Below, one piece after another: positions 42,539-46,846 of a stretch of 64,000 nucleotides of DNA. The stretch is taken from the NCBI GenBank assembly GCA_024709145.1, contig JANJXG010000043.1:1-64000 (forward strand). The letters are read 5' to 3'. Source of the stretch: Bacteroidales bacterium. Lineage in GTDB: Bacteria; Bacteroidota; Bacteroidia; Bacteroidales; F082. The notes under the pieces were generated by a model. The model ran no database searches and was not told the origin of the DNA. It saw only the letters and a list, made by a program, of their open reading frames with translations. The position numbers were made by a program, and so were the translations under genes. How positions within the stretch are numbered: the first letter of the stretch is position 1; every line of letters starts with the position of its first letter.

Positions 42539-43045
42539 ATGAAGATGACAGAGGGAGCAGAAAATATTTCCAGAATCAGGGATATCCTGATCGGCAACAA
42601 CCTGAATGAGTTTGAAAAGCGTATGGAAAAAGCTGAAATCGCCGCACGTCAGTCGGTTGAATCAGTGGAATCGCAGTTAAACCGGCAGCTTTCCGATCTC
42701 CGGTTGCAGCTTGAAGATCTGCGGCAACAGTTTCAGATCATGCTGCAAAAGGAAAAGGAGGGTTTGCAGGATTCGCTGAACCGACAGCGTGAGGAACTCG
42801 TTTTAGTACATCAGAAAATCGAACAGCTCCGATCAGAATTTGAAGAATCGTTGCGGGAAACCAGGCAATGGATGGCTGAAAAATCAGAGTCGCTGCATCA
42901 GGAGCAGCTTACCCAGCTTCAGGAATACAAAAAAACAGTGGCTGAAGCCATTGCAGGTGTTCAACAAAGTAAAGCCGACCGGCATGCCCTTGCTGTCATG
43001 TTTTCGGAACTTGCTGTTCAGCTGGCCGAAAAAAAAGAAGGTTGA
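42539..43045 (+). CDS. Coiled-coil protein, first gene of the GTPase operon
   Basis: A 168-residue hydrophilic protein without signal peptide or membrane helix. From about residue 20 to 155 it is almost entirely heptad-rich and full of Glu, Gln, Leu and Arg (SQLNRQLSDLRLQLEDLRQQ, REELVLVHQKIEQLRSEFEE), so a long parallel coiled coil is expected. I do not recognise a family. The gene is 15-25 bases upstream of the OmpA-like protein gene and probably cotranscribed. It may act as a cytoplasmic scaffold or effector for the GTPase or the membrane protein; that is inference from context. A second ATG at 42545 is possible. Confidence 0.75.
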   Translation: MKMTEGAENISRIRDILIGNNLNEFEKRMEKAEIAARQSVESVESQLNRQLSDLRLQLEDLRQQFQIMLQKEKEGLQDSLNRQREELVLVHQKIEQLRSEFEESLRETRQWMAEKSESLHQEQLTQLQEYKKTVAEAIAGVQQSKADRHALAVMFSELAVQLAEKKEG

Positions 43046-43069
43046 ACGCAATAAGCAGCAGTGAAAAAA

Positions 43070-44797
43070 ATGGAAAAAGCAACTCCACAAGACCCTGAGC
43101 AACTGGCTGAAGCAGCCAGACTCAATGAGCTGCGCAGGTTATTGATCGGCCTGAGCCAGGAAGAATTGCGCCGTTTGCAACTTCTGTTAAGCGACCCTCA
43201 TGAATTTGCTGAAGAATTAAGCCAGCTGCTCCCTTATGCCATCAGAAAGATGATAGAAAAGGGTGAAATTACCGTTGACAATCTGCTGCCTTTCGTGGAG
43301 GATGCGATGCACAAAAGCATCCAAAAAAATCCGCAAAGACTTGCCGATATTCTTTTCCCAGTGATGGGTCCAGCCATCCGGAAAGCAGTTTCAGAAGACC
43401 TGAAACGCATGATTGCAGCCATCAATGCTTCACTGGAAAGCGGGTTGTCGCCAAAAACACTGAAATGGCGTTTGCAAGCTATGACAAGTAAACGCAGTTT
43501 TGCCGAGATCGTCCTGGCCAATAGTTATGTATATCATGTTAGTCATGTGTTTCTCATTCACCGTGAAACAGGTCTTCTGCTTCATGAAGAGCAAGCAGCC
43601 GAAAGCAAATCACTCGAAGCCGACCTTATTTCATCTATGCTGACCGCCATCAGGGATTTTGCACAAGACTCCTTTAAACAGGCCACGCCTGGTTCACTCG
43701 ATGAGATTCAGGTTGGCGAACTCAAAATTCTCGTCGAACAAGGCCCTTTTGCAGTTTTGGCTGCCATCATCGAGGGTCAGCCACCGGCTGATTACCGTCT
43801 TACCCTGATGGAGACCATCGAAGCGGTGCATTATAACCATGTTGTAGACCTGGAAAAATTCAATGGCGACACAACAGTTTTCAGGCATACAGCAAAATTT
43901 TTGCAACAATGTCTCATCAAAGCCAAAAAAACAAGTACAAGCAAGCCTCCTTATTTGCTGATGGCATTTCTTTTTCTTGGCATGGCAGGTTTAGGTTATT
44001 TTTTAGTACAAAGATACCAACATACCAAACTGTTGAAGAGTTTTGCCAACGCTCTTGAATCTCAGGCCGGCTATCATCTGACAAATTCTGATGTGAAAGG
44101 CCGAACAATATATATCAGTGGTTTAAAAGATCCACTGGCTGCGGGTCCCGACTCAATTCGCGAGGCGATGAATATCGAAAACCGTAGTTTGGAGATGCAT
44201 TTTGACGCCTATGTTTCTGCAGATCCCGCAATACTTTTAAAAAGAGCCAGGGTATTTTTGAACCCTCCTTCCGGAGTAAATCTTTCACTCTCAGGACAGA
44301 CTTTGATTGTTTCAGGAAAAGCGGACGCGGCATGGGTTCAGCAACTCGGGCAATTAACTGCATTGCCTGATGGCATTCAGGCTGTTGATGATACTGGCTT
44401 GAATCAGCTGGCTTCGGATCTGACCTGGATTATTCCAGCCATCGAAGAAAAAAGCTTTGGTTTTGATGTCAATGTCATCAAGCTCGACAATCAGCAGCAA
44501 ATTGTATTTGATTCCCTGGTACGTGCAGCTTTAGAACTCGAGAATTACAATCAAATTTATAATAAAACATTAGCCATATACGTCAGGTCCTACACGAAGC
44601 GAAGTAACAATGCCCTGGCCAATGAAAAAGTTGCAAGGCAAAGAGCTGAAGAATTCATCAGCTTGCTTGAGAGGTCCGGTGTAAAAAAGGACTTGTTAAA
44701 ATCCCAGGTTTTATTTGCAGAAGACCTCAACGAAAATGTATCTTTGCGCACCGTGCATTTTGCTGTTTTCGATAAAAACCAATCCGGGAATGATTAA
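43070..44797 (+). CDS. Transmembrane protein of a cyanobacterial-type OmpA-like family
   Basis: About 575 residues. The cytoplasmic part (1-290) has ADILFPVMGPAIRKAVSEDL, LKWRLQAM, SFAEIVLANSYVYHV and VFLIHRETGLLLHE, then an alpha/beta segment (ELKILVEQGPFAVLAAIIEG) that looks like a roadblock/longin-type sensor. One transmembrane helix follows (about 298-316; PYLLMAFLFLGMAGLGYFLV). The distal part has YISGLKDPLAAGP, ARVFLNPPSGVNLSLSGQ (BON-like) and a C-terminal OmpA-like segment (NNALANEKVARQRAEEFISL). I recall this whole order from cyanobacterial and proteobacterial OmpA-family proteins, often next to small GTPases. The usual peptidoglycan-binding Asp is not evident. An in-frame GTG at 43061 is an alternative start. 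The stop overlaps the GTPase ATG. Confidence 0.8.
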   Translation: MEKATPQDPEQLAEAARLNELRRLLIGLSQEELRRLQLLLSDPHEFAEELSQLLPYAIRKMIEKGEITVDNLLPFVEDAMHKSIQKNPQRLADILFPVMGPAIRKAVSEDLKRMIAAINASLESGLSPKTLKWRLQAMTSKRSFAEIVLANSYVYHVSHVFLIHRETGLLLHEEQAAESKSLEADLISSMLTAIRDFAQDSFKQATPGSLDEIQVGELKILVEQGPFAVLAAIIEGQPPADYRLTLMETIEAVHYNHVVDLEKFNGDTTVFRHTAKFLQQCLIKAKKTSTSKPPYLLMAFLFLGMAGLGYFLVQRYQHTKLLKSFANALESQAGYHLTNSDVKGRTIYISGLKDPLAAGPDSIREAMNIENRSLEMHFDAYVSADPAILLKRARVFLNPPSGVNLSLSGQTLIVSGKADAAWVQQLGQLTALPDGIQAVDDTGLNQLASDLTWIIPAIEEKSFGFDVNVIKLDNQQQIVFDSLVRAALELENYNQIYNKTLAIYVRSYTKRSNNALANEKVARQRAEEFISLLERSGVKKDLLKSQVLFAEDLNENVSLRTVHFAVFDKNQSGND

Positions 44798-45284
44798 GAA
44801 AAAAATTGCGATGTTAGGCGCATTTGCTGTCGGCAAAACCAGTCTTGTGCAGCAATATGTAAACAGTATTTTTTCTGAAAAATACCAGACAACGATTGGG
44901 GTTAAAATTGACCAGAAGCAATTGATCATTGATGGCCAGGATATTACCTTAATGCTTTGGGACCTTTATGGTGATGACGATTTCATGAAAATGAAACCCA
45001 CCTACCTGATAGGTGCCTCAGGCTATTTGCTCGTTGCTGACGGAACGAGAAGCGAAACGATTGATGTAGCAATTCAGCTGCAGGCAATGGCTGCCGCCAC
45101 AACAAACAACGCCCCTTTTATCCTCCTGATCAACAAAAGCGATTTGGATGAAACCTGGGAGATAGCACCTGAAACCTTGCTTCGCCTGCAGCAAAGGGGC
45201 TGGCAGGTATTGCTCACCAGTGCAAAAAAAGACCTGATGGTGGATGAAGCGTTTGAGAAACTTGCCAAAATGATGCTGGCCTGA
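44790..45284 (+). CDS. Ras-like small GTPase with altered switch II
   Basis: A 164-residue single-domain protein. G1 is GAFAVGKTSLV, G2 Thr lies in KYQTTIGVKI, G3 is WDLYGDDDF, G4 NKSD and G5 TSAK. Overall it looks like a bacterial Rab/Ras-like GTPase with no lipidation tail. In eukaryotic Ras/Rab the G3 reads WDTAGQE; here the catalytic Gln position is Asp, so hydrolysis should be slow or depend on a partner. The start ATG overlaps the end of the OmpA-like gene by 8 bases, which signals translational coupling. A longer ORF reaching 44715 reads through the upstream gene and is rejected. Confidence 0.9.
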   Translation: MIKKKIAMLGAFAVGKTSLVQQYVNSIFSEKYQTTIGVKIDQKQLIIDGQDITLMLWDLYGDDDFMKMKPTYLIGASGYLLVADGTRSETIDVAIQLQAMAAATTNNAPFILLINKSDLDETWEIAPETLLRLQQRGWQVLLTSAKKDLMVDEAFEKLAKMMLA

Positions 45285-45295
45285 AAGTAAGTGCA

Positions 45296-46846
45296 ATGCA
45301 ACATATTAAAAATCAAGCCGGACTAAAGGAATTGTCGCCCGCTGTTGTGCGGTACATTCTGCATGAAATCCCACCCTATATTGGATTGGTTGTCATACAC
45401 ACCGATGAATCAGGTGTTATTTTAAACTGGTTCGGTCCACTTGAAAAGTATTTCAGCATCCCGCCTGTGAAAGGCAGCAGCATCGATGATTTCGATGGGA
45501 TTTTTATCGGCATGGTCCCACCACTAATTAATCCCATGGTGATTTCCCATGTAAGGATCACGGCCTCAATTTATGTCGAAATCCATATCATTACCGACGA
45601 CAACAACCATAACTGGATTTTTCTGGTAGATCAAACAAGGCAGGTAGAAATAATTCATCCGTTTATACAGCTTTATAACGAAGAGAAACTTCAAAAAGCC
45701 AACGACCTCAGTCAATCTGCTGCCAAAGGCACGCTATCGGCCTTGTACCTGTTGGATTATATGAGCTTCGAAAAATCGGATAAAGGCTATCGTCAGCTTG
45801 GATTAAGCCCCGGCTGGTACTCCGATTTAAAATCAGCACTTGTTTTACGGGGCAAATATGTTGAATTGACCGAGACCTTCCCCTATCTCGAAGTTTTTCA
45901 GTACGAAATCGCCGACTTATGGCAAAGCGAACCTGACGGGAAGCAGGTGAGCGGTATTTGGGAAGAGGATCTTCGCAATGGAGGAAAGCTTTACCTTCAA
46001 GCCCTTGCACTGAGATATGATAAGAGAAATTACCTGTTGATAAAACCATTGAGTAAAGATTCAGAAATGAACGAAGGCTTTATTCAAAAAGCCAGGGAGC
46101 AAAAACTTACGCTCGATCAATTGGCCACAACAGAAAAGAAACTGAAACAGCTCCTGGGTTTTAAGGATCAGTTTGTTTCGATTATTTCACATGATTTGCG
46201 TTCACCGATCGGCGCAGTCATCGGTTTGAGCGAGCTATTGCTGACAGATGATGATTTGGCAAAAAAGATCAACCCTTCTCAGCAGGAGCTCCTGGTTGAC
46301 ATTAAAAATGAGATGCTGCGGCTGTTAGATTACAATGATAAGTTGTTTCAGTGGTCGAACCTGGAACTGGGTAATTTCAAGATCATTAAAACAAAGATCA
46401 AGGCTCAAAATCTGGCAACTTTTGTCGAAAAGATGCAATCTGCCAAGCTCAGGCAGAAAAACATTACCTTTCAAACTTTCACTCACCCTGACTTTAGTCT
46501 CGAAGGAGATGAAACCTTACTGGGTCAGGCCCTGAATAATCTTGTCGGTAATTCAGTGAAATTCACGCCTGAAAATGGTGTTATCAGCCTTCATTTCAAG
46601 CATTTAAACGAGCAAAGCGAGATTTGGGTCAGTGATACCGGTATTGGGATGGACAAAGAAACCAGTCAAAGGCTTTTTACAAGCTTCACCCGTAAAACCA
46701 CACCGGGAACCTATGGTGAAAAAGGCACAGGCTTGGGTCTTGGAATTGTTAAAAAGATTCTCGATGCCCACGGTTTCGGTGTTTTTGTGGATTCTGAACC
46801 GGGAAAAGGCAGCACATTTCGAATCAAACTTGCAACTGAGCTTTAA
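45296..46846 (+). CDS. Soluble PAS-type sensor histidine kinase of the GTPase operon
   Basis: A 516-residue protein without membrane helices. The N-terminal 130 residues look like a PAS-type domain (IGLVVIHTDESGVILNWFGP, IHIITDDNNHNWIFLVDQ), and a second sensor-like segment spans about 150-260. A short coiled coil leads into HisKA with VSIISHDLRSPIGAVIGLSE, and the ATPase domain has LGQALNNLVGNSVKFTPENG, VSDTGIGMDKE and GTGLGLGIVKKI, all intact. It lies 11 bases after the GTPase gene. No response regulator is in the operon, so its target must be elsewhere or it may report on the GTPase/membrane complex. Confidence 0.87.
   Translation: MQHIKNQAGLKELSPAVVRYILHEIPPYIGLVVIHTDESGVILNWFGPLEKYFSIPPVKGSSIDDFDGIFIGMVPPLINPMVISHVRITASIYVEIHIITDDNNHNWIFLVDQTRQVEIIHPFIQLYNEEKLQKANDLSQSAAKGTLSALYLLDYMSFEKSDKGYRQLGLSPGWYSDLKSALVLRGKYVELTETFPYLEVFQYEIADLWQSEPDGKQVSGIWEEDLRNGGKLYLQALALRYDKRNYLLIKPLSKDSEMNEGFIQKAREQKLTLDQLATTEKKLKQLLGFKDQFVSIISHDLRSPIGAVIGLSELLLTDDDLAKKINPSQQELLVDIKNEMLRLLDYNDKLFQWSNLELGNFKIIKTKIKAQNLATFVEKMQSAKLRQKNITFQTFTHPDFSLEGDETLLGQALNNLVGNSVKFTPENGVISLHFKHLNEQSEIWVSDTGIGMDKETSQRLFTSFTRKTTPGTYGEKGTGLGLGIVKKILDAHGFGVFVDSEPGKGSTFRIKLATEL

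What the first reader, a model, noticed from the sequence alone, without database searches (positions are those of the whole stretch)
43070..44797. OmpA-like protein has a sensor-like cytoplasmic half and an apparently degenerate peptidoglycan-binding site
Seen: a long N-terminal region before one transmembrane helix, with an alpha/beta segment (about 150-265) whose pattern (VFLIHRETGLLL, ELKILVEQGPFAVLAAIIEG) resembles roadblock/longin folds, and a C-terminal OmpA-like end where the usual Asp before NxxLSxxRA is not evident. Inference: the membrane protein is itself the GTPase partner, and its outer part may bind something other than peptidoglycan.
Basis: inference. Interest (0 to 1): 0.55.

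Follow-up and report, generated by a model that had tools for sequence, protein, structure and literature searches.

The report
Membrane longin partner of bacterial GTPase
A bacterial membrane protein carries, on its predicted inner side, a domain shaped like the longin/roadblock domains that work with Rab- and Ras-type switches in our own cells, sits next to such a switch gene in most of the loci examined, and on its outer side has lost one key residue of the usual cell-wall grip.

Summary
The finding holds up. Window 43070-44797 encodes a 575-aa single-pass membrane protein in a four-gene cassette (coiled coil, this protein, Ras-like GTPase, histidine kinase). The cassette is published as the predicted Group 1 Rup system (PMC4316618), where this protein's inner half is a 'domain of unknown function'. 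An AlphaFold model gives aa 153-287 a longin fold (best Z 13.3; the 50 listed PDB matches are all longin, roadblock, adaptor/coatomer or TRAPP-type by title). Profile comparison also links it to bacterial roadblock proteins. The GTPase is directly downstream in 87 of 101 loci, and both proteins occur in the same 14 of 395 genomes of the phylum. The OmpA-C fold is kept; the ligand Asp is Lys here and absent in 30 of 30 clade members, while 58 of 65 loci outside the clade keep it; ligand Asn and Arg remain in the clade. 'Binds something other than peptidoglycan' is undecided. Most likely this is a membrane-anchored, envelope-coupled platform (probably an exchange factor) for the GTPase.

The parts
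42539..43045 (+). coiled-coil protein (168 aa) whose N-terminus (ENISRIRDILIGNNLNEFEKRMEK) resembles the N-terminus of the longin/OmpA-like protein
   Evidence: ORF; only weak, coiled-coil-type matches; motif
43070..44797 (+). longin-TM-(BON-like)-OmpA-C-like membrane protein, 575 aa (GTG start 43061 possible)
43118..43195 (+). N-terminal motif RLNELRRLLIGLSQEELRRLQLLLSD (aa 17-42), shared in pattern with the coiled-coil protein
43526..43930 (+). longin/roadblock-fold domain, aa 153-287
   Evidence: model mca6ae4c49cd9; fold searches; profile comparison
43952..44008 (+). single transmembrane segment, aa 295-313
   Evidence: Kyte-Doolittle 2.05
44027..44401 (+). predicted periplasmic linker domain, aa 320-444, BON-like (tentative)
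   Evidence: model m41eacd859eba; Foldseek matches to Rv0899, BonA, OsmY; hardly tested
44402..44779 (+). OmpA-C-like domain, aa 445-570
44597..44599 (+). K510, at the position of the canonical DAP-binding Asp; N518 at 44621-44623 and R525 at 44642-44644 are retained
   Evidence: PorE ligands in passages of PMC7192894
44790..45284 (+). Ras-like (Rup Group 1 type) GTPase; its ATG overlaps the end of the membrane-protein gene by 8 nt; G3 motif WDLYGD, no Gln
   Evidence: Pfam Ras E 2.9e-29
45296..46846 (+). histidine kinase (HisKA, HATPase_c) with a long N-terminal region; predicted output of the cassette

Best explanation
The protein is a transmembrane platform for the Ras-like GTPase encoded directly after it. 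Its cytoplasmic longin-fold domain binds the GTPase, most likely as a dimer, and most likely promotes nucleotide exchange. Its single helix and periplasmic BON-like/OmpA-C-like part tie the complex to the cell envelope and pass on its state. The loaded GTPase then acts on the kinase encoded after it, together with the coiled-coil protein. Shown here: the cassette, its conservation, the predicted longin fold, the co-occurrence and the altered Asp. Inferred: membrane topology, GTPase binding, dimerisation, exchange activity, signalling across the membrane, and action on the kinase.
For: Fold: VIA Z 13.3 to the Sec22b longin domain (2nut_C, 122 residues, 2.4 A), 12.7 VAMP7 longin, 12.6 human CPLANE chain C (12.4 in the Fuzzy-Inturned entry), 10.5 MglB (3t1s, 104 residues, 2.5 A); by title the 50 listed rows, out of 1000 preselected chains, are all longin, roadblock, adaptor/coatomer or TRAPP-type (family of the adaptor, coatomer and TRAPP chains recalled). 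The aligned range of the best longin rows reaches model 275-282, past the last helix (262-272), whereas MglB rows end at 254-256, so longin is nearer than roadblock. Foldseek has 25 matches at E <= 0.001, of the same kinds by title. Profile comparison with roadblock proteins of the same phylum: score 32.2, against 100 column shuffles with mean 11.8 and maximum 20.0, reversed alignment 21.2. The GTPase is directly downstream on the same strand in 87 of 101 loci gathered by the membrane protein. In 395 genomes of the phylum the two occur in the same 14, including three with the GTPase on another contig. The window genome has no Robl_LC7 match, and its only strong Ras match is this GTPase. L082 and L083 keep only the longin half, and L128 ends in a hydrophobic segment; all three sit before the GTPase. 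The best PDB matches of the GTPase by sequence are Rab23 and then Rab7/Ypt7, whose exchange factors Fuzzy-Inturned and Mon1-Ccz1 are longin proteins (abstract of PMC6864590) and are among the fold matches.
Against: No complex could be modelled; binding and exchange are inferred. The N-half model is moderate (mean pLDDT 72.6, pTM 0.46) and low, 49-68, over the domain's first helix, loop and short third strand. Whole-model TM-scores are low (0.2-0.35 by query length), since the domain is half the model, and several of the 25 Foldseek rows have rmsd above 10 A. Exchange, GTP-hydrolysis help and plain recruitment cannot be told apart. The only invariant columns of A3 are L14, P90, M183, A186 and A224: none is of catalytic type. 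The PDB sequence search with the domain profile gave at best E 0.083, and no longin or roadblock family is among the 21 Pfam families listed for 18 members at E up to 10. The invariant Gln reported for the output protein's N-terminus is only 53 of 71 at the best column of my quick alignment. The 14 genomes are not independent cases (11 genera).
Confidence: 0.68

Rival explanations
1. The longin domain is a GTPase-activating or hydrolysis-stimulating partner, as MglB is for MglA, making up for the missing G3 Gln.
For: MglB is a fold match and bacterial roadblock proteins are profile relatives. The GTPases lack the G3 Gln in 94 of 95 loci, so help in trans is expected.
Against: No invariant Arg, Gln or Asn in the aligned inner half. 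PMC4316618 points to a Gln in the output protein instead (section read). A passage says roadblock/longin dimers act mainly as exchange factors and occasionally as activators (PMC10933270).
Confidence: 0.2
2. The longin domain is a passive receptor (effector) that holds the GTPase at the membrane; exchange and hydrolysis are set by the kinase and the coiled coil.
For: Some roadblock/longin proteins mainly scaffold (recalled: Ragulator). An output protein directly follows the GTPase in 71 loci.
Against: No direct evidence either way; the near one-to-one pairing fits a regulator at least as well.
Confidence: 0.25
3. The OmpA-like end no longer binds peptidoglycan and has taken a different ligand in this clade (compatible with the best explanation, not an alternative to it).
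For: Asp replaced in 30 of 30 clade members, with Lys in the window; the non-Asp state clusters on the tree (5 changes against a shuffled mean of 30.4); four other OmpA domains of the same genome keep the Asp.
Against: Asn and Arg kept in 30 of 30; fold intact; in PorE the DAP carboxylate is held by Arg and backbone amides, and its amino group also by Asn (passage), so weaker peptidoglycan binding remains possible.
Confidence: 0.3
4. Ordinary OmpA-family envelope protein, chance neighbour of a GTPase.
For: Pfam sees only OmpA, below its cut-off.
Against: 87 of 101 adjacency, identical set of 14 genomes, longin fold.
Confidence: 0.02

Closest known systems
Group 1 Rup system (Wuichet and Sogaard-Andersen, PMC4316618)
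   Same: Same four genes: coiled coil, 'unknown domain'-TM-OmpA protein, Ras-like GTPase without G3 Gln, histidine kinase or other output (sections 16-18 read)
   Different: [quoted passage not shown] Here the domain has the longin/roadblock fold, and the OmpA end has lost its Asp in the window's clade.
Longin-domain exchange factors of Rab7/Rab23 (Mon1-Ccz1, Fuzzy-Inturned)
   Same: Longin fold paired with a GTPase whose best PDB sequence matches are Rab23 and Rab7/Ypt7
   Different: Single longin domain, bacterial, fused through a transmembrane helix to an OmpA-like part; activity untested; partner genes adjacent
MglB/roadblock partners of MglA, and conservon CvnB
   Same: Roadblock/longin superfamily protein encoded next to a bacterial Ras-like GTPase (and, in conservons, a histidine kinase)
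   Different: Not a Pfam Robl_LC7 match; nearer to longin than to MglB in fold (Z 13.3 against 10.5); membrane-spanning; GTPase of the Rup, not the MglA, kind by its G3 motif and neighbours
OmpA C-terminal domain proteins (Capnocytophaga OmpA, PorE, Pal, Rv0899)
   Same: OmpA-C fold; Asn and Arg ligands as in PorE
   Different: Asp replaced by Lys in the window and by Ser/Asn/Thr/Leu in its clade; Pfam score below cut-off

Membership tests
Group 1 Rup system | Ras-like small GTPase lacking the G3 Gln | tested here: met
   Pfam Ras E 2.9e-29; WDLYGD in the window; Gln in 1 of 95 other loci
Group 1 Rup system | neighbours: coiled coil, unknown domain-TM-OmpA, signalling output module | tested here: met
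   in the 18 loci of relatives GTPase and kinase 18 of 18, coiled coil by blastp 11 of 18
Group 1 Rup system | invariant Gln in the N-terminal region of the output protein | tested here: inconclusive
   best candidate Q264, 53 of 71 in a quick alignment
Group 1 Rup system | place in the published Rup tree | not tested
   reference sequences not fetched
longin/roadblock superfamily | two strands, helix, three strands, then C-terminal helices around a five-stranded sheet (recalled) | tested here: met
   predicted model only, with low confidence in the first helix and third strand:
longin/roadblock superfamily | sequence relation to known members | tested here: inconclusive
   HHalign against bacterial roadblock proteins above 100 of 100 shuffles (probability 62-77), but Pfam and the PDB sequence search (E 0.083) do not reach significance
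longin/roadblock superfamily | dimer that binds a small GTPase | not testable with these tools
   only single chains can be modelled
Robl_LC7/MglB (PF03259) | match to the family profile | tested here: not met
   no match of the protein and none in the window genome
OmpA C-terminal peptidoglycan-binding domain (PF00691) | OmpA-C fold | tested here: met
   Z 12.0 to Capnocytophaga OmpA, 109 residues, 2.9 A
OmpA C-terminal peptidoglycan-binding domain (PF00691) | curated score cut-off | tested here: not met
   19.5 against 27.2 bits
OmpA C-terminal peptidoglycan-binding domain (PF00691) | ligand Asp | tested here: not met
   K510; non-Asp in 30 of 30 of the clade
OmpA C-terminal peptidoglycan-binding domain (PF00691) | ligand Asn and Arg | tested here: met
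   N518 and R525; 30 of 30 each in the clade
OmpA C-terminal peptidoglycan-binding domain (PF00691) | binds peptidoglycan | not testable with these tools
   needs a binding assay

The most novel reading that the evidence does not exclude
Bacteria of many phyla hold a transmembrane longin-domain exchange factor that lets a signal from the envelope set the nucleotide state of a Rab-like GTPase, which then drives a kinase. This would be a bacterial receptor-to-small-GTPase switch and a counterpart of the eukaryotic Rab/longin-GEF pair. In the window's clade the outer part has moved from canonical peptidoglycan to another cue.
Probability: 0.33. Interest if true: 0.85.

Novelty: new variant of a known kind. 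Interest (0 to 1): 0.62.

Why it matters
The 2014 survey left Rup GTPases without an identified regulator; reading the unknown domain as longin/roadblock-type gives a direct candidate and an assay. It also places a longin-fold domain next to a Rab-like GTPase across several bacterial phyla, which bears on where the Rab-longin pairing of eukaryotes and Asgard archaea came from; [quoted passage not shown] The clade-wide loss of the OmpA Asp asks what the system senses.

Tried and rejected
I considered a PAS/GAF reading of the domain: no such row is among the 50 listed, but absence from that list is no proof. I considered 'degenerate and dead' for the OmpA end: rejected because fold, Asn and Arg are kept. 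A first column-shuffle control of the shared N-terminal motif had one misread value (129.3); I repeated it with a corrected parser. I considered a coevolution test of the interface and did not run it: too few pairs. A crude regex sorting of output types left 28 of 72 proteins unclassed and I do not use it.

Literature: 10 searches listed no paper that I recognised, from titles and abstract starts, as describing a bacterial longin-OmpA protein; this covers only the held open-access library, only the listed rows, and I did not open most of them. Papers seen: PMC4316618 abstract, outline and sections 16-18; passages of PMC7192894, PMC12108004, PMC10933270 and PMC4917890; abstract and outline of PMC6864590; all others only as search listings. 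Levine 2013 (PMC3747258) is not held.

Rows dropped before counts: 11 loci that repeat genomes already fetched (L084-L089, L092, L095, L096, L102, L103), by equal contig lengths. For the Asp column, nine rows lack the stretch: L037 and L101 (N-terminal pieces of split genes; their C-terminal pieces were counted, the one for L037 taken from its duplicate L095), and L082, L083, L109, L126, L128, L142, L147. Alignment at that site is poor in L159 and L160.

Full report
What is there. The reading frame at 43070-44797 (GTG possible at 43061) is the second of four genes on the + strand: coiled-coil protein 42539-43045, this protein, Ras-like GTPase 44790-45284 (its ATG overlaps the preceding gene by 8 nt), histidine kinase 45296-46846. 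Pfam sees only a sub-threshold OmpA match in the protein (19.5 against 27.2 bits). The window's genome holds one match. 19 of 61 searched genomes have a match, the own one included, among them all 9 of the genus. In the 18 loci fetched around these matches the GTPase and the kinase follow in 18 (the kinase cut by the contig end in two), and blastp finds the coiled coil in 11.

This cassette is published as the predicted Group 1 Rup system. Wuichet and Sogaard-Andersen (PMC4316618; [quoted passage not shown] The window's GTPase has WDLYGD; only 1 of 95 GTPases in the other unique loci has Gln at that position, 80 have Glu or Asp.

The inner half. I aligned 33 sequences, the window included, and modelled aa 8-290 (mean pLDDT 72.6, pTM 0.46). 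Residues 153-287 form two strands, a helix, three strands and two helices. Confidence is 80-88 in eight of thirteen ten-residue blocks of the domain, but 49-68 over its first helix, the following loop and the short third strand. Foldseek gives 25 PDB matches at E <= 0.001, which by title are clathrin-adaptor, coatomer, Mon1-Ccz1, Fuzzy-Inturned/CPLANE, TRAPP, Rag/GATOR-Ragulator and MglB entries; TM-scores by query length are only 0.2-0.35, the domain being half of the model, and several rows have rmsd above 10 A. VIA gives Z 13.3 with Sec22b (122 residues, 2.4 A), 12.7 VAMP7, 12.6 CPLANE chain C (12.4 in the Fuzzy-Inturned entry) and 10.5 MglB (104 residues, 2.5 A); the 50 rows listed, out of 1000 preselected chains, are all of this superfamily by title and recall. 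The aligned range runs past the last helix in the best longin rows and stops before it in the MglB rows. [quoted passage not shown] By sequence, HHalign of 102 rows with a roadblock alignment from the same phylum scores 32.2 (probability 62, E 7.5e-5 for one comparison); 100 column shuffles give mean 11.8 and maximum 20.0, the reversed alignment 21.2. A 14-row alignment scores 35.3 (probability 77), against 16.0 and 14.2 for two unrelated alignments. Against this, no such family is among the 21 Pfam families listed for 18 members, and the PDB sequence search gives only a weak Asgard roadblock hit, E 0.083.

Association with the GTPase. Of 101 unique loci besides the window, all gathered by the membrane protein (18, 14, 69), 87 have the GTPase directly downstream on the same strand (-60 to +120 nt); in 2 it follows the second piece of a split membrane-protein gene; in 6 it lies 298-1761 nt away on the other strand; in 6 it is not in the held stretch. 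Of these last six, L130 and L142 end at contig ends, L074-L076 belong to genomes with the GTPase on another contig, and L109 has no GTPase-profile match in its 6.6 kb. In 395 genomes of the phylum a proper match to the longin half (E <= 1.6e-27; the next match is 9.8e-6, so this line was drawn after seeing the gap) occurs in 14, and the GTPase (E <= 1e-20) in 14, the same genomes, the window's included. The other 19 genomes have weak matches only, 18 within the OmpA-like end and one at profile positions 258-357. The 14 genomes fall in 11 genera, so they are not 14 independent cases. The window genome has no Robl_LC7 match. Its five other Ras-profile matches, all over Pfam's cut-off, are much weaker (E 1.4e-7 to 1.1e-4 against 7.6e-29) and lie in open frames of 401-1088 aa.

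What can be dispensed with. L082 (280 aa) and L083 (283 aa) keep the longin half without an OmpA part; L083 has no hydrophobic segment, and the 1.71 stretch of L082 at residue 210 falls, I judge, in the domain's strands. L128 (Dehalococcoidia) is 336 aa and ends in a strongly hydrophobic segment. All three have the GTPase downstream. L109, L126 and L147 also end before the OmpA-C site. I read this as the longin-GTPase pair being the core and the periplasmic part an input.

The outer half. aa 320-575 modelled at pLDDT 92.4 (pTM 0.54). aa 445-570 are an OmpA-C fold (Z 12.0 to Capnocytophaga OmpA, 109 residues, 2.9 A). The stretch before it resembles BON-like domains (Rv0899, BonA and OsmY among the matches), tentatively. 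In PorE the side chains that bind the peptidoglycan fragment are Asp576, Asn584 and Arg591 (passage of PMC7192894); the same spacing gives K510, N518 and R525 here. In the window's clade the Asp is absent in 30 of 30 (21 Ser, 6 Asn, 1 Thr, 1 Lys, 1 Leu), while Asn and Arg are present in 30 of 30. Outside it, 58 of 65 loci with the stretch have Asp: 50 of 53 public-contig loci (13 of them near-identical Variovorax-type rows) and 8 of 12 other loci of the same phylum. Arg is in all 95 (the site is poorly aligned in L159 and L160). On a quick tree of the inner half (102 rows, 37 of 99 inner branches open) the non-Asp state needs 5 changes (shuffled mean 30.4); the window's 30 rows form one branch with support 99, and their sister L108, a MAG titled Bacteroidales, has Asp. 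Four other OmpA domains of the same genome keep the Asp, so this is not a genome-wide change. Whether peptidoglycan binding is lost, weakened or replaced is open.

A further observation. The coiled-coil protein and the membrane protein share an N-terminal pattern (xIRDILFG... and xLRxLLxG...). A common pattern fits 74 of 97 upstream proteins (chosen only as the longest ORF of 100-330 aa ending near the membrane-protein start) and 73 of 102 membrane proteins, against shuffled means of 0.8 and 1.6; a stricter one, modelled on the coiled coil, fits 70 of 97 but only 9 of 102. Profile comparison scores 21.3 (probability 33) against 100 shuffles with mean 8.7 and maximum 15.0. It could be a shared docking or pairing helix; this is inference. 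The sections of PMC4316618 that I read do not mention it.

Mechanism. Best reading: a membrane-anchored longin platform, probably an exchange factor, that couples the envelope to the GTPase and through it to the kinase. Exchange is favoured because longin complexes act as exchange factors for Rab7-subfamily GTPases (abstract of PMC6864590), because roadblock/longin dimers act mainly so (passage), and because no arginine or glutamine is invariant in the aligned inner half. An activator role or a pure receptor role is not excluded. The output module varies: histidine kinase in the window, GAF-kinase in L106 and PAS-sigma54 activator in L079.

Novelty. The cassette is known as a prediction; the identity of its unknown domain as longin-type, the pairing statistics, the Asp history and the shared N-terminal motif are new as far as the searches named under Tried and rejected can tell. 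The rank is new variant of a known kind.

Noticed in passing
window 42539-43045 and 43118-43195: The coiled-coil protein and the membrane protein share an N-terminal motif (IRDILFG / LRxLLxG followed by an amphipathic stretch) in most loci examined; possible common docking element.
   Followed up: partly
L037:4956-6688 (same locus as L095), L101:5314-7050: The membrane-protein gene is in two adjacent reading frames in two genomes, broken some 70-80 residues after the membrane helix; real split or assembly error not decided.
   Followed up: no
L082:5872-6711, L083:5884-6732, L128:5944-6954: Longin half without OmpA part: apparently soluble (L082, L083) or ending in a hydrophobic segment in a Dehalococcoidia MAG (L128), still next to the GTPase.
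   Followed up: partly
L071, L072, L073, L077: Four same-phylum loci outside the window's clade have the GTPase on the opposite strand and also lack the OmpA Asp.
   Followed up: no
L107: A locus from a MAG titled Klebsiella pneumoniae groups with a Chloracidobacterium locus on the tree (support 87); the title is probably wrong.
   Followed up: no
L159:5971-8406, L160:573-3008: 811-aa relatives in Mariprofundaceae/Ghiorsea with repeated linker units and a strongly diverged OmpA end.
   Followed up: no
L079:7059-8810: The output gene of this cassette is a PAS-sigma54 activator, an output type not named in the sections of PMC4316618 that I read.
   Followed up: no
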